Assembly (NCBI RefSeq): GCF_005938105.1
Contig: NZ_VCPE01000018.1
Location: 79,358-143,357, forward strand
Origin: Brucella haematophila
GTDB taxonomy: Bacteria; Pseudomonadota; Alphaproteobacteria; Rhizobiales; Rhizobiaceae
DNA length: 64,000 nt
Direction of reading: 5' to 3'
In this document: positions 1-6,483 of the stretch, in pieces
Layout of the letters: each line of letters opens with the position of its first letter
How positions within the stretch are numbered: the stretch's first letter is position 1
The notes under the pieces: model-generated
The model's input: only the letters and a program-made list of their open reading frames with translations
What the model was told of the DNA's origin: nothing
Databases searched by the model: none
Made by a program: the position numbers and the translations under genes

Positions 1-287
1 GCGATGAGACAACGGAAGCGATGCACGCTGTGCTGCATAAGGAATTGCCGGGTTTTGGCGAGTTGATGCGCCGCGTCAGTCTGGAACAGACGCCGACGGC
101 CATTCTTTCGCGCCAAACGGCAGGTAGTCGCGGCAAGAGTTTCATTTTAAACCTGCCGGGCAAACCTGCATCCATAGCGATGACGTTGCAGGCGGTCTTT
201 CCCGCTATCCCGTATTGTTTGGATTTGATCGGTGCGGGGCGCATCGAAACCGACCCCGCCGTCGTTAAGGCGCATCGTCCCGTCTAA
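1..287 (+). CDS. MogA-like molybdopterin adenylyltransferase, C-terminal part
   Basis: The reading frame is open from the left edge (frame of base 3) and stops at 287, so only about the last 94 codons are present. The residues match the C-terminal half of MogA/MoaB enzymes, which adenylylate molybdopterin before molybdenum insertion: a PGFGE segment, PTAILSRQ, ILNLPGKP and a closing IPYCLDLIGA block, all in family order. The MPT-binding N-terminal part lies outside the window. A 162-base gap separates it from the next gene, which is unrelated in function. Family assignment is firm; MogA versus the paralogue MoaB cannot be settled from this fragment. Confidence 0.85.
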   Translation, partial: DETTEAMHAVLHKELPGFGELMRRVSLEQTPTAILSRQTAGSRGKSFILNLPGKPASIAMTLQAVFPAIPYCLDLIGAGRIETDPAVVKAHRPV

Positions 288-449
288 GAAAAACCGCGCA
301 GCGATTCCCGATTTGGACGGAATTCTACATTGCCTTTCGTCTGTTGTCATCACGACGAATTGCGCAACCCTGCTTTGCACTTTTATATGATTTCAATGCT
401 TGCTTTTCCCCGAAACCGCGCCGAATAATAGCGAAAAAAGGGGTACTAA

Positions 450-1862
450 GTGAAGCCATTTGACGAAATGCTCAACCATGGCGGGAATGTCCGCCCACCT
501 TACGAATTTCTCAAACAGTGGCTCGACGGCCAGGATTCTGGCAAGCTTTTGCAGAAGTCTCATGATGCCGAAAGCGTCTTTCGCAAGACCGGCATCACCT
601 TTGCGGTCTATGGCGATCAGGAAGCCGCCGAGCGGCTCATTCCCTTCGATATCATCCCGCGCATTATTTCCGGTCAGGAATGGCGTCGTCTTTCGCAGGG
701 CATCGAACAGCGCGTCATGGCGCTCAACGCCTTCCTCGACGACATTTATCATCGGCAGGAAATCATCAGGGCAGGGCGTATTCCCAAGGAACTGATCACC
801 AAGAACGAGGCATTTTTGCCCGAAATGATCGGTTTTCGTCCGCCCGGTAATGTCTATACGCATATTATCGGTGTCGATATCGTGCGCACGGCGGAGAACC
901 AGTTCTATGTGCTGGAGGACAATGCCCGCACGCCATCCGGCGTTTCCTATATGCTGGAAAATCGCGAAACGATGATGCAGCTTTTCCCGGAGCTGTTCCA
1001 GAACGTCAAGGTGCGTCCGGTCGAGAACTATCCGCAACTTCTGCGCCAGTCGCTGGCCAGTGTTGCACCTCCCGGCACACAGGGCGTGCCAACTGTCGCG
1101 GTGCTGACGCCCGGCATTTATAATTCCGCCTATTTCGAACATGCGTTTCTGGCCGACCAGATGGGTGTCGAGCTGGTGGAAGGAAGCGATCTGCGGGTGG
1201 TCGACGGACGTGTTGCGATGCGCACCACGCAAGGCTATCGCGCCATTGACGTGCTCTATCGTCGCGTGGACGACGCCTATCTCGACCCACTGACCTTCCG
1301 TCCGGATTCGACGCTCGGCGTTGCCGGTATCATGGATGTCTATCGCGCGGGTAATATCACCATTGCCAATGCGCCGGGCACCGGCATTGCGGATGACAAG
1401 GCGATCTATTCCTACATGCCGGAAATCGTCGAGTTCTATACGGGCCGCAAGGCGATCCTCGAAAATGTGCCGACATGGCGCTGTTCGGAACCGGACAGTC
1501 TGGCCTATGTGCTCGACAATCTTGCCGATCTCGTCGTCAAGGAGGTGCATGGTTCTGGCGGTTACGGCATGCTGGTCGGGCCTGCGTCCACCAAGGCGGA
1601 ACGGGAAGCCTTTTCGAAGAAGCTCCAGGCTCGCCCGCGCAACTATATCGCGCAGCCGACGCTGGCGCTTTCCACGACTCCGATCTTTACTGAAAAGGGG
1701 CTGGCGCCGCGCCATGTCGATCTGCGTCCCTTCGTGCTGGTTTCAGACCGTATCCGTATCACGCCGGGCGGCTTGACCCGTGTGGCGTTGAAGGAGGGAT
1801 CGCTCGTTGTGAACTCCAGTCAGGGTGGCGGCACCAAGGATACCTGGGTTCTGGACGACTAG
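450..1862 (+). CDS. circularly permuted ATP-grasp protein (type 2, DUF404/DUF407)
   Basis: The 470-residue product starts at a GTG preceded by a GGGG-type ribosome site. It carries the signature blocks of circularly permuted ATP-grasp proteins: LEDNAR at 155-160, YRRVDD at 270-275, NAPGTGIADDK at 307-317 and KEVHGSGGYGM at 364-374. Family members are predicted to ligate amino acids or peptides using ATP; the substrate is not known. It is the first gene of a co-directional set with an alpha-E protein, a transglutaminase-like protein and Anbu, an association seen in many bacteria. A promoter may lie in the 162 bases upstream, where a TATATGAT-like element is visible near 385. Function beyond predicted peptide ligation is inference. 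Confidence 0.92.
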   Translation: MKPFDEMLNHGGNVRPPYEFLKQWLDGQDSGKLLQKSHDAESVFRKTGITFAVYGDQEAAERLIPFDIIPRIISGQEWRRLSQGIEQRVMALNAFLDDIYHRQEIIRAGRIPKELITKNEAFLPEMIGFRPPGNVYTHIIGVDIVRTAENQFYVLEDNARTPSGVSYMLENRETMMQLFPELFQNVKVRPVENYPQLLRQSLASVAPPGTQGVPTVAVLTPGIYNSAYFEHAFLADQMGVELVEGSDLRVVDGRVAMRTTQGYRAIDVLYRRVDDAYLDPLTFRPDSTLGVAGIMDVYRAGNITIANAPGTGIADDKAIYSYMPEIVEFYTGRKAILENVPTWRCSEPDSLAYVLDNLADLVVKEVHGSGGYGMLVGPASTKAEREAFSKKLQARPRNYIAQPTLALSTTPIFTEKGLAPRHVDLRPFVLVSDRIRITPGGLTRVALKEGSLVVNSSQGGGTKDTWVLDD

Positions 1863-1957
1863 ACGTTGCGTGAATACGATTTTGTGTGCGTGGAACCCGG
1901 CATCAAGACCGGAGCGCGAAGACGGAGCCGAAAAGGCTCGATAAGGGGAATGATTTC

Positions 1958-2899
1958 ATGCTTTTAGGCCGCACGGCAAACGGGCTTTTCTGGATGTTCC
2001 GCTACATTGAACGGGCGGAAAACATGGCTCGCCTGGTGGATGCCGGATTGCGCATGGCGCTGACCAAGACGTCCGATGCACCGGAGGAATGGTCTTCTGT
2101 GGTGGTGTCGGCGGGCGCAAGTCAGGCCTTTTCCGCCAAATATGATGCATACAATGCTGCAAATGTTGCCGATTTCCTGCTGCGGGACACCAGCAATCCG
2201 TCAAGCGTGATGTCGTGTTTTGAGACAGCGCGTTCCAATGGGCGCATGGTGCGCACCGCGCTGACACGTGAAGCGTGGGAAAGCGTCAACGAAGCATGGA
2301 TGCTTTTGAAAAAGTCGCTGAGCAAGCCTTTGAAGGAAAGCGACCTGCCACCGCTACTCGACCAGATCAAGCGCGAAACTGCGCTGATCCGTGGCGCTTT
2401 TCACGGCACTATGCTGCGCAACGAAATTTTCGATTTCGCGGGCCTCGGCACCTTCATAGAGCGCGCCGACAACACGGCACGTATCCTCGACGTGAAATAT
2501 TATGTGCTTTTGCCAGCCATATCCTATGTCGGCACGACGCTCGATAATTATCAGTGGGAGTCGATCCTGCGCTCGGTCTCGGCGGATCGCTCCTATCGCT
2601 GGGTTTATGAGGGCGATTATCGACCGGCCCATGTTGCGGATTATCTGATCCTGAACGGGCGCATGCCGCGCTCACTGAATTACTGCTATCGCAGCATCAA
2701 CGAGCATCTGGATTTTCTGTCCAAGGACTATGGCAACAATGCCACCTGTCATGAAACAGGGGAGAAAATCTTTTCGACACTGCAAAATCAGGACATAAGT
2801 GCCATCTTTGATGTGGGACTGCATGAATTCCTGACGGACTTCATCAAATGCAACAACCGGCTCGGCAACGAGATCGCTGAAACCTATAATTTCTATTGA
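1958..2899 (+). CDS. alpha-E domain protein (DUF403)
   Basis: The ATG at 1958 has an AAGGGGA ribosome site 8 bases upstream, and the product (313 residues) then starts with MLLGRTANGLFWMFRYIERA, the usual N-terminus of the alpha-E family; an in-frame start at 1886 would add 24 unusual residues and is rejected. The protein is predicted to be all alpha-helical with no signal peptide. Alpha-E proteins are almost always encoded beside circularly permuted ATP-grasp enzymes and transglutaminases and are thought to work with them in making or handling a peptide; no biochemical activity is established. It lies 95 bases after the ATP-grasp gene and 9 bases before the transglutaminase gene. Confidence 0.92.
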   Translation: MLLGRTANGLFWMFRYIERAENMARLVDAGLRMALTKTSDAPEEWSSVVVSAGASQAFSAKYDAYNAANVADFLLRDTSNPSSVMSCFETARSNGRMVRTALTREAWESVNEAWMLLKKSLSKPLKESDLPPLLDQIKRETALIRGAFHGTMLRNEIFDFAGLGTFIERADNTARILDVKYYVLLPAISYVGTTLDNYQWESILRSVSADRSYRWVYEGDYRPAHVADYLILNGRMPRSLNYCYRSINEHLDFLSKDYGNNATCHETGEKIFSTLQNQDISAIFDVGLHEFLTDFIKCNNRLGNEIAETYNFY

Positions 2900-2908
2900 G
2901 GTCCTCGC

Positions 2909-3706
2909 TTGCATCTTAAAATCCGGCACGTTTCGCATTATGCTTATGAACATCCGGTGCCCTATGCGGTGCAGCGTTTGCGTTTGCGGCCGCCGACCGT
3001 GCCGGGACAGGTGGTGAAGCACTGGGAAGTGAAGATCGAAGGCGGCGAGCCGGAAGTCTCTTATATTGACGGTTTTGGCAACAAGACCGATTTGGTGCAG
3101 CACCATCGCAATATCAGCGAGATTATCATCACCGCCAGCGGCAGTGTCGAGGTAGAAGACCGCGTCGGCGTGCTCGGTCCGGTGTATGGCTACGCGCCAT
3201 TGTGGCTGTTTGAGCGTGAAACAGAACTGACCTTGCCGGGTGAGGGCATTCGCGCTCTGGCAGGCGAACTTTCAACCGGGATGGAACGGCTTGCGCTGTT
3301 GCACGATCTGATGAACCGCGTCCATGCGAACGTGGCCTATGTGCCTGGCACGACCAGCGTTTTCACCGATGCGGAAACGGCACTCGGCGCGGGCAAGGGG
3401 GTCTGTCAGGACCACAGCCATGTCTTCCTGTCGGTCGCGCGGCTTCTCGGCATACCTGCGCGTTATGTCTCCGGCTATCTCATGATGGAGGGCGTGGAAG
3501 ACCAGACTGCAAGCCATGCCTGGGCGGAAGCGCATATTGACGGGCTTGGTTGGGTCGGGTTCGATGCGGCCAACAATATTTGCCCGAATGACCGCTATGT
3601 GCGTCTGGCGACGGGGCTCGACTATCGCGATGCGGCTCCAATTTCGGGGGTTAGGCTCGGTGGAACGGCTGAAAGCCTTGCGGTTCACATCAATGTAGGG
3701 CAGTGA
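2909..3706 (+). CDS. transglutaminase-like cysteine protease family protein
   Basis: The 265-residue product starts at TTG, 9 bases after the alpha-E gene, with a GAGG ribosome site overlapping the previous stop. It has the N-terminal beta domain of bacterial transglutaminase-like proteins (residues 1-80) and a papain-like core with the full catalytic triad: Cys166 in GKGVCQDHS, His203 in SHAWAEA and Asp219 in GFDAAN. No signal peptide is visible, so it is probably cytoplasmic. Members act as proteases or amide-bond-rearranging enzymes. Its place between alpha-E and Anbu suggests it processes the peptide made by the ATP-grasp enzyme, which is inference. Confidence 0.93.
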   Translation: MHLKIRHVSHYAYEHPVPYAVQRLRLRPPTVPGQVVKHWEVKIEGGEPEVSYIDGFGNKTDLVQHHRNISEIIITASGSVEVEDRVGVLGPVYGYAPLWLFERETELTLPGEGIRALAGELSTGMERLALLHDLMNRVHANVAYVPGTTSVFTDAETALGAGKGVCQDHSHVFLSVARLLGIPARYVSGYLMMEGVEDQTASHAWAEAHIDGLGWVGFDAANNICPNDRYVRLATGLDYRDAAPISGVRLGGTAESLAVHINVGQ

Positions 3707-3745
3707 TCGGACAAGAACGATGATATTGCCTGCCGGATACTGCTG

Positions 3746-4489
3746 ATGACCTATTGCGTTGGAATGAAAACCGATCGTGGCCTTGTGTTCATGTCCGACA
3801 CCCGGACAAATGCAGGGCTCGATAATATTTCCACTTTTTCCAAGATGCGGAGCTGGTCGAAGCCCGGCGACCGCGTCATCGTCCTGCTTTCGGCTGGCAA
3901 TCTTGCCACGACCCAATCCGTCGCCAGCCTTCTGGAAGAACGGATGAAGGCACCTGCCGACAGACACCCGTCAGTATTCGATGCTCCGTCCATGTTTCAG
4001 GTCGCGCGGCTGATCGGTGACACGGTCAAGGAAGTGATCCAGAACTCAGCAACCGGTGGCCAGAAGGCGGCAGATGCGTTCGGTGCTTCCTTCATTCTGG
4101 GTGGACAAATCAAAGGCGGCCAGCCGCGCCTGTTCTATATCTATCCGGAAGGCAATTTCATCGAAAGCTCGGTCGATACGCCGTTCTTCCAGATCGGCGA
4201 GAACAAATATGGCAAGCCCATTCTGGTGCGTGCCTACCAGCCGGATATGAGCTTCGAGGAAGCGGTGAAGCTGCTGCTGGTCTCTTTCGATTCCACGCTG
4301 AAAGCCAATCTCTCTGTCGGGCTTCCTCTGGACATGCAGATTTACGAAGCCGATAGCCTCAAGACGGGCATGCAGCGGCGCTTCGAAGCAACGGATCCTT
4401 ATTACCAGACGGTATCCGAAAGCTGGTCCGAAGCGCTGAAATCGGCGCTCGTGCAGTTGCCGCCATTCAGTTTCGACGATCAGAAATAA
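3746..4489 (+). CDS. Anbu, proteasome-like Ntn-hydrolase peptidase
   Basis: The 247-residue product begins M-T-Y-C-V-G, which places Thr2 as the N-terminal nucleophile after Met removal. Asp18 (in SDTRTNAG) and Lys33 (in FSKM) fall where the proteasome/HslV active-site Asp17 and Lys33 are expected. Length and sequence fit Anbu, the ancestral-beta-subunit family that assembles into open, helically stacked rings. The start is fixed by the need for Thr at position 2, although the ribosome site is weak. It is the last gene of the ATP-grasp/alpha-E/transglutaminase set and is followed at once by a strong terminator. The physiological substrate of Anbu is not known. Confidence 0.93.
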   Translation: MTYCVGMKTDRGLVFMSDTRTNAGLDNISTFSKMRSWSKPGDRVIVLLSAGNLATTQSVASLLEERMKAPADRHPSVFDAPSMFQVARLIGDTVKEVIQNSATGGQKAADAFGASFILGGQIKGGQPRLFYIYPEGNFIESSVDTPFFQIGENKYGKPILVRAYQPDMSFEEAVKLLLVSFDSTLKANLSVGLPLDMQIYEADSLKTGMQRRFEATDPYYQTVSESWSEALKSALVQLPPFSFDDQK

Positions 4490-4514
4490 GAAATAATAAC
4501 CGTTTAAAAGAGAA

Positions 4515-4545
4515 GACCGGGCATCGCAGGATGCCCGGTCTTTTT
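4515..4545. terminator. bidirectional rho-independent terminator
   Basis: A perfect 10-bp stem, GACCGGGCAT paired with ATGCCCGGTC (4515-4524 and 4531-4540) with a 6-base loop, is followed by TTTTT on the plus strand and, reading the other way, by TTCTCTTTT. It separates the Anbu operon from the convergent binding-protein gene. Confidence 0.92.
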
Positions 4546-4547
4546 GA

Positions 4548-6254
4548 TTAGTCTTTCGTCACGGTCTGAACGTAGTTGGCGTCTGCAACCATGTTGAAAC
4601 CGTGCACATTCGCACCGGTCACAGCCGTCTCGATCTGCTGATAGAGGATGGCGAACGGGCTGGTTTCCTGAAACTTCTTCTGAAGATCGTGATACATGGC
4701 TTCACGCTTCGCCGTGTCGCGCTCTTCGGCAGCAGCCATGGTTTCAGCCGTCAGTTCCGGAATCTCCCAATGCGCCTGCCAGGCATTGGTGCGCATGGAT
4801 ACGTCTTCACCATTGTTCGGATTGTTGGTGAAGGTCACGGCATTGGTATGCGGATCCCAGTAGTCCGGGCCCCAGATGCCGAGTGCGAGCTGATGCTTGC
4901 GCGCACGCACCTTGGTCGTTGTCAGTTTGCCGTCGCCTTGCAGAATTTCCACGTCGATGCCAGCCTTGCGCATGGTCTGCTGAATGTTCTCGGCAATACC
5001 GACGCCGGGCTGCGTGTTGCGGACATCGAGTGTCACCTTGAAGCCGTCCTTCAGGCCGGCCTTGGCCAGCAGTTCCTTGGCCTTGTCGACATCATAGGTG
5101 AAAGGCTTGTCGTCCACCGCACCGAACATGCCCGCAGGCAGGAAGGATTGATGCGTGCGGCCAATGCCCTTGATGAGCTGGGATTCGATGGTGTTGTAAT
5201 CGATGAGATACTTGATTGCCTGACGCACTTCCGGCTTGGCCAGTTCAGGCACATTCTGGTTTGCGACCAGATAATAGACGCGCCCCTTCGGCGCTGCGAG
5301 AACGTGATACTTGTCGTCCTTGCTGAGCGTTTCCAGATCGCCGGGTTCAAGGTTGCGTGCAATATCGATATCGCCTGCCTGCAAGAGCAGACGCTGTGAG
5401 CTGCCTTCTTTCACATGACGATAGATCACGCGCTTCATGGCGGGCTTGACGTCGGCATAATTCTCGTTGCGTTCGAGAAGCAGCACTTCATTGGCACGCC
5501 ATTGCTTCAAGGCGAACGGGCCGGAACCGGCATAACCGGTTTTCAACCATTCATAGCCGAAGTCGGTATCGTAAGGATAAGCGTCGGTCTTTTCGGCCTT
5601 CTGCTCGTGCTCCTTGACCAGCTTGCTGTCTACGATGGACGCAACGCTGGAGGTCAGGCAGTTCAAAACGAAGCTCGGCGCAAACGCTTTTCCAGTCGTG
5701 AAGACCAGCGTTTCGTCATCGGGAGCCACGATATTCTGATCGGCATTGTCGCGTGTCAGGCCGAACTGGCTGAGAATGAAAGCCGGGCTTTTGTCGAGCT
5801 TGATCGCGCGTTGCAGCGAATAGGCAGCATCTTGCGCCGTCAACGGATTGCCGGAGGCGAATTTCAGGCCCTTGCGAATCTTGAAAGTGATCGAGCGGCC
5901 ATCATCCGAGAACGTCCAGCTTTCGGCGATCTGCGGGATGATCTTGGTCGGATCCTTGGTGTCCGTCGTCACCAGACGCTCATAGGTGCTGGTGAGCACC
6001 TCCGACGTGGTGATTTCGAAAATTTCCGCGGGATCGAGCGAAATGACGTCATCGATACCCATGGCGATGACCAGCGTATCGGCTGGCGTGGCGGCCTGCA
6101 CCGCTTTCGGCGCTGCCGACAGCAGCAGGCCAAAGGCCAGCGCAGCGGGAATTGTGCTGCGCAAAAGACGCTGCGCAAAGCCAGATTTCAGGCTTGTTCT
6201 GGAGGTGGTATCGCCATGGCGACGGTGATTGAAGGACAGGATTCCGGTGGTCAT
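4548..6254 (-). CDS. ABC transporter substrate-binding protein, dipeptide/oligopeptide family (SBP_bac_5)
   Basis: The start at 6254 (MTTGILSFNH...) has a GAAGGGGAAG ribosome site; the longer upstream frame is rejected. The 568-residue product has an N-terminal basic stretch, a hydrophobic core and an alanine-rich cleavage region (near KAVQAATP), so it is exported. The mature part carries family-5 features: an early SLDPAEIFE segment, RKGLKFASGNPLTAQD and a C-terminal LGIWGPDYWDPH block. Family members bind dipeptides, oligopeptides or other solutes in the periplasm for an ABC importer. No permease or ATPase gene is adjacent, so it is an orphan binding protein. Substrate unknown. Confidence 0.88.
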   Translation of the reverse strand: MTTGILSFNHRRHGDTTSRTSLKSGFAQRLLRSTIPAALAFGLLLSAAPKAVQAATPADTLVIAMGIDDVISLDPAEIFEITTSEVLTSTYERLVTTDTKDPTKIIPQIAESWTFSDDGRSITFKIRKGLKFASGNPLTAQDAAYSLQRAIKLDKSPAFILSQFGLTRDNADQNIVAPDDETLVFTTGKAFAPSFVLNCLTSSVASIVDSKLVKEHEQKAEKTDAYPYDTDFGYEWLKTGYAGSGPFALKQWRANEVLLLERNENYADVKPAMKRVIYRHVKEGSSQRLLLQAGDIDIARNLEPGDLETLSKDDKYHVLAAPKGRVYYLVANQNVPELAKPEVRQAIKYLIDYNTIESQLIKGIGRTHQSFLPAGMFGAVDDKPFTYDVDKAKELLAKAGLKDGFKVTLDVRNTQPGVGIAENIQQTMRKAGIDVEILQGDGKLTTTKVRARKHQLALGIWGPDYWDPHTNAVTFTNNPNNGEDVSMRTNAWQAHWEIPELTAETMAAAEERDTAKREAMYHDLQKKFQETSPFAILYQQIETAVTGANVHGFNMVADANYVQTVTKD

Positions 6255-6426
6255 GCAACTTCCCCTTCGGTCATGGCCATCATTTGGGCCGGACCATGCA
6301 TAGAAAATGCGCCTCATAGTCTGAGAAGCCGGATGTCCGCGACTCGCTCTGGCGCCGCGCCATTAGATTCCTATTTAGGGAAGGTTCACAATATAGACTG
6401 CGCTTATCAGGCAATATTGTGCCCGC

Positions 6427-6458
6427 AAAAAAGAAAAGGCCGGAGAAGATCTCCGGCC
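6427..6458 (-). terminator. rho-independent terminator of the nitroreductase gene
   Basis: On the minus strand a 9-bp stem (GGCCGGAGA with TCTCCGGCC, plus-strand 6438-6446 and 6450-6458) is followed by TTTTCTTTTTT. It lies 26 bases after the nitroreductase stop codon. Confidence 0.88.
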
Positions 6459-6483
6459 CTGTCTCATATTCTCAAATTCGGGA

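What the first reader, a model, noticed from the sequence alone, without database searches (positions are those of the whole stretch)
450..4545. Complete Anbu peptidase operon with predicted peptide-ligase partners
ATP-grasp, alpha-E, transglutaminase-like protease and Anbu are co-directional with 9-95 base gaps, and a strong terminator closes the set. All catalytic residues are intact (Cys166/His203/Asp219 in the protease; Thr2, Asp18 and Lys33 in Anbu). The gene association is known from comparative genomics, but the product made and degraded by this system is not. Inference: the ATP-grasp/alpha-E pair builds a peptide or tag, and the two proteases mature or clear it.
Basis: partly seen in the sequence, partly recalled or inferred. 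Interest (0 to 1): 0.75.

Follow-up and report, generated by a model that had tools for sequence, protein, structure and literature searches.

The report
Ordinary four-gene Anbu peptidase operon
A known but still unexplained bacterial gene set that probably joins small molecules with one enzyme pair and cuts them again with others; this copy is intact and ordinary, and its relatives suggest that the cutting enzymes are interchangeable.

Summary
In detail: ATP-grasp (450-1862), alpha-E (1958-2899), transglutaminase-like protein (2909-3706) and Anbu (3746-4489) are intact and co-directional, with gaps of 95, 9 and 39 bases and a strong terminator. This is the published Anbu operon, single-copy in its genome. 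It is partly supported: in 200 genomes every alpha-E genome has the ATP-grasp, and the two are often fused, while the hydrolases are optional. Whole genomes of the same family carry the rest without Anbu; Aureimonas operons lack the transglutaminase; in two genomes a zinc metallopeptidase (Peptidase_Mx) sits beside the ligase pair where no PF08379 transglutaminase passed the cut-off. That favours hydrolysis over cross-linking. Not supported: a small peptide gene conserved across lineages (only a small AsnC-type gene upstream in 10 of 81 loci, not here) and Thr2 autoprocessing (published Anbus lose only Met1). The sigma-54/NtrC nitrogen control known from Pseudomonas and Burkholderia relatives has no visible site here. 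No substrate is known. An ordinary member of a known kind.

The parts
288..449 (+). Promoter region upstream of the operon: conserved block TTGCGCAACCC-N-GCTTTGC at 360-380, then CTTGC-type -35-like and AATAAT-like -10 elements
   Evidence: Seen in most of 27 other genus members aligned, clear outlier L152; exact 21-base match only once in the own genome; no sigma-54 (GG-N10-GC) candidate. Promoter assignment is inference; the pattern scan lists no + strand promoter here.
450..1862 (+). Circularly permuted ATP-grasp protein (predicted amide/peptide ligase), 470 aa, GTG start
   Evidence: PF14403 E 1.8e-168, PF04174; 3n6x 'putative glutathionylspermidine synthase' E 3.8e-192 over nearly the whole length; median omega 0.025, n=27
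1958..2899 (+). Alpha-E protein, 313 aa, predicted helical domain of unknown activity, ATG start (not GTG 1886)
   Evidence: PF04168 E 2e-94; ATG at this place in 29 of 29; no credible PDB relative by sequence
2909..3706 (+). Transglutaminase-like cysteine hydrolase, 265 aa, TTG start; Cys166/His203/Asp219
   Evidence: PF08379+PF01841; triad invariant in 76 of 76; TTG at this place in 29 of 29
3746..4489 (+). Anbu (proteasome-like Ntn hydrolase), 247 aa; Thr2/Asp18/Lys33; Anbu-1-like S1 pocket
   Evidence: PF00227; PDB entries 5loy, 5nyj, 5nyf, 5nyw, 5lox; catalytic residues invariant in 81 of 81
4510..4545 (+). Intrinsic terminator, also placed to end the convergent gene 4548-6317(-)

Best explanation
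The operon encodes a conjugation-and-release module. ATP-grasp and alpha-E form one amide-ligase unit that uses ATP to join a carboxylate and an amine, giving a small peptide-like conjugate. The transglutaminase-fold cysteine hydrolase and the Thr hydrolase Anbu cut such bonds again, each able to serve without the other. In working principle it resembles a ligase paired with its amidase (glutathionylspermidine synthetase/amidase is the textbook case, recalled). Shown here: operon anatomy, purifying selection, ATP-grasp/alpha-E linkage with natural fusions, and optional or exchanged hydrolases. Inferred: that the ligase forms an amide, that the hydrolases act on its product, and that the product is a small non-ribosomal molecule rather than a gene-encoded peptide. 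In Pseudomonas and Burkholderia relatives the genes answer to nitrogen limitation, so a role in nitrogen economy is likely there and uncertain here.
For: In 200 genomes of the phylum: alpha-E 112, ATP-grasp 116 (113 over cut-off); all 112 alpha-E genomes have the ATP-grasp; 68 of 69 Anbu genomes have both. Fused ATP-grasp/alpha-E frames in at least 24 genomes (equal frame length in both listings), one confirmed. 44 of 112 alpha-E genomes lack Anbu, among them four of the window's own family (G043, G107, G194, G197); Sinorhizobium pSymB and a Rhizobium plasmid carry close ATP-grasp/alpha-E/transglutaminase homologues with no Anbu beside them. Transglutaminase-less ATP-grasp/alpha-E/Anbu in 3 Aureimonas loci. 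Peptidase_Mx beside the ligase pair in G102 and G186. Of alpha-E genomes without a good PF08379 hit 4 of 5 have Peptidase_Mx, against 23 of 107 others (p 0.012; 0.043 if G186 is counted with the others). 9 of 31 full-length Peptidase_Mx places lie within 5 kb of a core gene (lower bound). Operon absent as one block in 4 of 4 genus members without Anbu. Nitrogen induction: P. putida PP_2685-2688 (PMC8050072, PMC7801951), Burkholderia I35_5080-83 (PMC5491218). The ATP-grasp of the Yersinia operon releases phosphate from ATP (PMC6376114).
Against: Purified Anbus cut none of the standard substrates, and no contact between Anbu and its operon partners was found (PMC5666114, PMC6376114). The Yersinia ATP-grasp was not stimulated by Gln, Glu or Anbu, and amide formation was not told from ATP hydrolysis. 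PMC5666114 prefers protein degradation over peptide synthesis. The Aureimonas genomes keep other PF08379 proteins elsewhere, so the loss may be compensated. Only PF08379 was searched genome-wide; transglutaminase-like proteins without it would be missed. Most Peptidase_Mx genomes also have PF08379 (23 of 28), so the two often coexist. G031 lacks both; G094 has Anbu without ATP-grasp or alpha-E; 9 of 69 Anbus lie more than 10 kb from a listed alpha-E (listing truncated). 'Replaces the transglutaminase' rests on two genomes. Nitrogen control is not visible at this window's promoter.
Confidence: 0.5

Rival explanations
1. Protein tagging and degradation: the ligase attaches a peptide or amino acid to proteins and Anbu, as a proteasome-like particle, degrades or de-tags them.
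For: Anbu is a proteasome homologue that forms 12-subunit assemblies and binds proteasome inhibitors (PMC5666114); tagging and DUB-like roles are among the published hypotheses (PMC6376114).
Against: The other three genes run without Anbu in close relatives: 44 of 112 alpha-E genomes lack Anbu, four of them in the window's family; no small tag gene recurs across lineages beside the operon; an AAA+ partner appears to be absent (PMC5666114).
Confidence: 0.2
2. Bulk protein turnover under nitrogen starvation: Anbu and the transglutaminase-like protein recycle amino acids; the ligase pair is a separate nitrogen-storage or scavenging step.
For: Nitrogen-limitation induction in P. putida, where in one study Anbu (log2 4.44) rises as much as ATP-grasp (3.99) (PMC8050072); NtrC/sigma-54 dependence in Burkholderia; COG3484 (Anbu) listed among enriched sigma-54 targets in alpha, beta and gamma classes (PMC12316311); DUF403/404/407 correlate with urea domains in marine metagenomes (PMC3597751); Anbu about 4 kb from ntrBC on an Acidithiobacillus plasmid.
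Against: In another P. putida study Anbu rose less than its neighbours (1.1-4.8 against 11-37, PMC7801951), and the promoter before Anbu was constitutive; no sigma-54 site in the window and none above chance in 73 mostly alphaproteobacterial upstream regions.
Confidence: 0.2
3. Cross-linking: the transglutaminase-like protein is a true acyl transferase joining proteins or peptides made by the ligase.
For: Family name; Cys-His-Asp triad intact; cross-linking is how PMC6376114 introduces it.
Against: A zinc metallopeptidase family protein lies in the same surroundings in two genomes where no PF08379 protein passed the cut-off; it could replace hydrolysis but hardly acyl transfer.
Confidence: 0.08

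Closest known systems
Anbu operon of Pseudomonas, Yersinia and others (Valas & Bourne 2008; Iyer et al. 2009, both as cited in PMC5666114/PMC6376114)
   Same: Same four families in the same order and strand; Thr/Asp/Lys of Anbu; no propeptide; Anbu-1-like S1 pocket
   Different: No sigma-54 site visible here; a conserved upstream block of its own; one copy of each family found in the genome
Second operon type: transglutaminase-DUF2126 protein plus fused ATP-grasp/alpha-E (L178; similarly named genes in Burkholderia, PMC5491218)
   Same: Same ligase and transglutaminase families
   Different: ATP-grasp and alpha-E fused in L178; DUF2126 amidoligase; not in the window's genome, which has single ATP-grasp, alpha-E and PF08379 hits
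20S proteasome / HslV
   Same: Ntn hydrolase relatives with catalytic Thr/Asp/Lys
   Different: Anbu forms open rings with no known AAA+ partner and no propeptide (published); operon partners are ligase-like
Glutathionylspermidine synthetase/amidase (recalled)
   Same: ATP-grasp ligase coupled with a hydrolase of its product; the PDB match 3n6x is named a putative glutathionylspermidine synthase
   Different: Partners here are separate genes of other hydrolase families; the product is unknown; no membership is claimed

Membership tests
Anbu (Anbu-1 subtype) | Closest solved structures are Anbu, full length | tested here: met
   Five sequences, E 5.7e-89 to 1.6e-64
Anbu (Anbu-1 subtype) | Thr right after Met1, Asp and Lys catalytic residues, no propeptide | tested here: met
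   T2, D18, K33, 81 of 81
Anbu (Anbu-1 subtype) | S1 pocket T20-F30-T48-L52-S55 (mature numbering), not the basic Anbu-2 pocket | tested here: met
   Window T, F, S, L, T: 3 identical, 2 conservative; no Arg pair. Pocket residues from a PMC5666114 passage. In relatives F31 is F in 58 of 81
Anbu (Anbu-1 subtype) | Peptidase activity and open 12-mer | not testable with these tools
   Bench question; Anbus in the two papers seen showed no activity on standard substrates
Anbu operon | ATP-grasp, alpha-E, transglutaminase, Anbu, same strand, this order | tested here: met
   72 of 80 related loci alike
Anbu operon | One transcript | tested here: inconclusive
   Short gaps, one terminator; no RNA data for this genome; in P. 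putida the stretch before Anbu also drove expression by itself
Amide ligase of the ATP-grasp fold | Amide bond formation | not testable with these tools
   Family assignment only
NtrC/sigma-54 nitrogen regulon | -24/-12 promoter upstream | tested here: not met
   No GG-N10-GC candidate from -300 to +30; 73 loci at shuffle level, though L081 reaches 10 of 11; three of six loci from outside the class reach 10 of 11. PMC12316311 counts alpha classes among those enriched
Anti-phage defence | Match to a PADLOC model | tested here: not met
   0 of 4 proteins

The most novel reading that the evidence does not exclude
Three different hydrolase families (transglutaminase-fold Cys, Anbu Thr, zinc Peptidase_Mx) serve one ATP-grasp/alpha-E ligase interchangeably, so the real unit is a non-ribosomal conjugation cycle whose conjugate, not the proteasome relative, defines the system; Anbu would then be a proteasome homologue specialised for a small conjugate.
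Probability: 0.3. Interest if true: 0.65.

Novelty: new member of a known kind. Interest (0 to 1): 0.33.

Why it matters
The substrate of Anbu, a relative proposed near the origin of the proteasome, was unknown in the two Anbu papers seen (dated 2017), and no later answer turned up in the searches made. Gene-content variants found here (no Anbu, no transglutaminase, Peptidase_Mx alongside) give a natural series for telling which part acts on what, and suggest looking for a small ligase product instead of testing Anbu on proteasome substrates.

Tried and rejected
Small peptide gene near the operon: six-frame ORFs of 20 aa or more outside the four genes at 81 loci (80 plus window) were clustered (blastp 1e-6; only the 60 largest families were printed, those in 8 or more loci). 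A second look for short same-strand families within 600 bases of the operon in 4 or more loci gave five groups. One is a real small gene by Pfam: a 78-79 aa Lrp/AsnC ligand-binding domain protein 157-585 bases upstream in 10 of 81 loci, mostly Mesorhizobium, not in the window. The other four occur in 4 to 8 loci of the same kin and read like alternative frames of neighbouring genes (my reading, not tested). No group spans lineages. Short or fast-evolving peptides could escape both tests.

Coding in the 95-base ATP-grasp/alpha-E gap: its length varies from 53 to 277 bases over 29 genus loci and the aligned sequence shows no evident conserved frame, so it is treated as untranslated.

alpha-E C-terminus as an acceptor tail: the Phe near the end is conserved but is followed by no residue or several of no fixed kind; not pursued.

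sigma-54/NtrC control: rejected for this window. Regulon search with the upstream block: one exact site (the operon), one 2-mismatch site, two 3-mismatch sites, 1 control hit; no regulon inferred.

Defence system: no PADLOC match. alpha-E against PDB by profile: best E 0.34, nothing credible. Paper searches: at least two of six COG numbers together gave 0 papers; the Peptidase_Mx terms gave nothing relevant, so whether its link to this operon is in print is not settled; Iyer et al. 2009 was not held. A broad search from 2018 on listed 20 of 5,669 papers, none relevant in the listing. PMC5748707 held none of the terms sought.

Dropped rows: L137 and L153 (partial alignments of ATP-grasp and alpha-E) from codon and alignment work; L154 has no ATP-grasp (contig end); L141 left out of the gap alignment. 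dN/dS numbers: 27 for ATP-grasp, 28 for the others, 2 of the Anbu 28 saturated. Of 34 Peptidase_Mx places listed, 3 partial ones were left out of the adjacency count, and the core-gene places used there were a partial list. G186 was set by hand among genomes without PF08379, its best E of 4.6e-5 being presumably the one match under the cut-off. From 34 usable alpha-E rows, 30 plus the window went into alignment A2.
Full report
What is there. Four genes on the + strand: ATP-grasp 450-1862, alpha-E 1958-2899, transglutaminase-like 2909-3706, Anbu 3746-4489, with gaps of 95, 9 and 39 bases. Pfam places all four above cut-off. Anbu's best solved relatives are five Anbu sequences; the ATP-grasp matches 3n6x, a 'putative glutathionylspermidine synthase', over residues 2-470 of 470. 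A 16-pair hairpin with a T run at 4510-4545 closes the set and faces the end of the convergent solute-binding-protein gene. The genome holds one alpha-E, one ATP-grasp, one PF08379 and one Anbu match and no Peptidase_Mx.

Is it functional. Within the genus the proteins are under strong purifying selection: median omega 0.025 (ATP-grasp, n=27), 0.036 (alpha-E, n=28), 0.075 (transglutaminase-like, n=28), 0.036 (Anbu, n=28, 2 saturated). The alpha-E/transglutaminase gap is 9 bases in 29 of 30 genus loci, while the ATP-grasp/alpha-E gap varies from 53 to 277 bases. Catalytic residues of the transglutaminase-like protein and Anbu are invariant in 76 of 76 and 81 of 81 sequences. Anbu is in 31 of 35 genus genomes. 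In the 4 without it the genes that flank the operon (mog and a nitroreductase) lie side by side, and no piece of the four genes was found between them (genome-wide by DNA only one 29-base match to Anbu in G231). The operon is thus absent as one block, together with the solute-binding-protein gene. The latter varies on its own: of 30 genus loci fetched, 17 have it next, 9 have the nitroreductase next, and 26 have mog upstream.

Wider context. Of 80 related loci, 72 carry the four genes together in this order (69 plain, 2 with an extra transglutaminase-like frame beside them, 1 with ATP-grasp in two frames; some are cut at a contig end), 1 has them rearranged, 3 are cut before ATP-grasp or alpha-E by a contig end, 3 (all Aureimonas) lack the transglutaminase and 1 has Anbu alone. 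In 200 genomes of the phylum: Anbu 69, alpha-E 112, PF08379 110 (109 over cut-off), ATP-grasp 116 (113 over cut-off), Peptidase_Mx 28. Every alpha-E genome has the ATP-grasp (112 of 112); 68 of 69 Anbu genomes have both, the exception being G094; 64 of 69 have PF08379. Anbu lies within 10 kb of a listed alpha-E in 60 of 69 (the alpha-E listing was truncated). ATP-grasp and alpha-E share one reading frame, by equal frame length in both listings, in at least 24 genomes; in one, Pfam finds both domains in an 837-aa protein beside a transglutaminase-DUF2126 protein. Natural fusion is a usual sign of direct partnership.

The hydrolases are the loose part. 44 of 112 alpha-E genomes have no Anbu; four of these (G043, G107, G194, G197) are in the window's own family and have ATP-grasp and PF08379. 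Sinorhizobium pSymB and a Rhizobium plasmid carry ATP-grasp, alpha-E and transglutaminase with no Anbu beside them and no Sinorhizobium is among the 27 plasmid records with an Anbu match; their chromosomes were not searched. An Agrobacterium plasmid has ATP-grasp and alpha-E alone. Aureimonas carries ATP-grasp, alpha-E and Anbu without the transglutaminase, though PF08379 proteins occur elsewhere in those genomes. Five alpha-E genomes have no good PF08379 hit (G031, G082, G102, G196, and G186 with E 4.6e-5); four of these have Peptidase_Mx, against 23 of 107 others (p 0.012; 0.043 if G186 is moved). In G186 a Peptidase_Mx frame follows alpha-E with a 4-base overlap; in G102 it runs tail to tail into Anbu; in G082 and G196 it lies elsewhere. 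Over all, 9 of 31 full-length Peptidase_Mx places lie within 5 kb of a core gene, a lower bound. A zinc peptidase can stand in for hydrolysis, hardly for acyl transfer, so the transglutaminase-like protein is more likely a hydrolase. The genomes are related to unknown degrees, so the p-values are only a guide.

Regulation. In P. putida the homologous genes rise under nitrogen limitation: in one study ATP-grasp, alpha-E and transglutaminase 11-37 and Anbu 1.1-4.8 (PMC7801951, passages), in another Anbu as much as ATP-grasp (log2 4.44 and 3.99), though the stretch before Anbu was constitutive and the one before ATP-grasp responsive in reporters (PMC8050072, passages). In Burkholderia a related cluster, with a large transglutaminase-like protein, depends on NtrC and sigma-54 (PMC5491218, passages). 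A 2025 survey lists COG3484 among enriched sigma-54 targets in alpha, beta and gamma classes (PMC12316311, passage). The window has no sigma-54 candidate, and 73 upstream regions (window included) sit at shuffle level (5 of 73 score 9 or more against about 4.4% of shuffles; one, L081, reaches 10), whereas three of six loci from outside the class reach 10 of 11. The genus instead conserves a TTGCGCAACCC-N-GCTTTGC block and CTTGC/AATAAT-like elements; in the own genome the block is exact only here. So nitrogen control cannot simply be carried over to this genome.

Small genes. The only small same-strand neighbour that Pfam recognised is an Lrp/AsnC ligand-binding domain of about 78 aa upstream in 10 of 81 loci, mostly Mesorhizobium, absent here. 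It is an amino-acid-sensor type by family, not an obvious peptide precursor.

Mechanism. Most likely a ligase unit (ATP-grasp plus alpha-E) and hydrolases that reverse or trim its product. Shown: gene content, linkage, fusion, optional and exchanged hydrolases. Inferred: amide formation, the shared substrate, its small size. Against: published Anbus were inactive on standard substrates, no partner contacts were found, the Yersinia ATP-grasp was not stimulated by Gln, Glu or Anbu, and one group prefers protein degradation (PMC5666114, PMC6376114, passages only).

Its observation is accurate. Its model is the published one; the parts that could be tested here are partly borne out. Two of its proposed checks need correction: no small peptide gene recurs across lineages, and autoprocessing is not how Anbu exposes Thr. 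Its refuter 'separate transcripts' may be partly met in P. putida without harming the functional link.

Verdict. An ordinary, intact, single-copy member of a known and unexplained kind. The variant series is the useful part; whether the Peptidase_Mx link is already in print could not be settled.

Noticed in passing
window 275-6482: Four genus members lack the whole operon and the neighbouring solute-binding-protein gene; mog and nitroreductase are adjacent there.
   Followed up: yes
window 4548-6317 (-): Family-5 solute-binding-protein gene (PF00496) convergent with Anbu; next to Anbu in 17 of 30 genus loci, the nitroreductase in 9.
   Followed up: partly
L048 4348-4584 and nine further loci: Stand-alone Lrp/AsnC ligand-binding domain gene of about 78 aa, same strand, 157-585 bases upstream of the operon, mostly in Mesorhizobium.
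   Followed up: partly
L158 (G000:C34:191880-191900): Second, 2-mismatch copy of the operon's upstream block, about 200 bases before an MFS transporter gene.
   Followed up: partly
L203: Azospirillum plasmid Anbu stands without its usual partners in the annotated stretch, among ABC transporter genes and near hydroxyisourate hydrolase.
   Followed up: no
L204: Acidithiobacillus caldus megaplasmid: Anbu about 4 kb from ntrBC, with a transglutaminase family gene further on.
   Followed up: no
L172, L176, L179: In G082, G196 and G019 Anbu lies beside a mutS gene (Pfam), away from ATP-grasp/alpha-E.
   Followed up: partly
L200: Agrobacterium plasmid carries ATP-grasp and alpha-E (82% and 68% identical) with neither transglutaminase nor Anbu beside them.
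   Followed up: partly
L198: Burkholderia cenocepacia replicon carries an ATP-grasp (84.5%) and alpha-E (67%) unusually close to the window's, with a transglutaminase matched in two pieces and no Anbu beside them; its Anbu lies about 1 Mb away.
   Followed up: no
window 1-64000: No tRNA and no Rfam family at gathering score in the whole window.
   Followed up: yes
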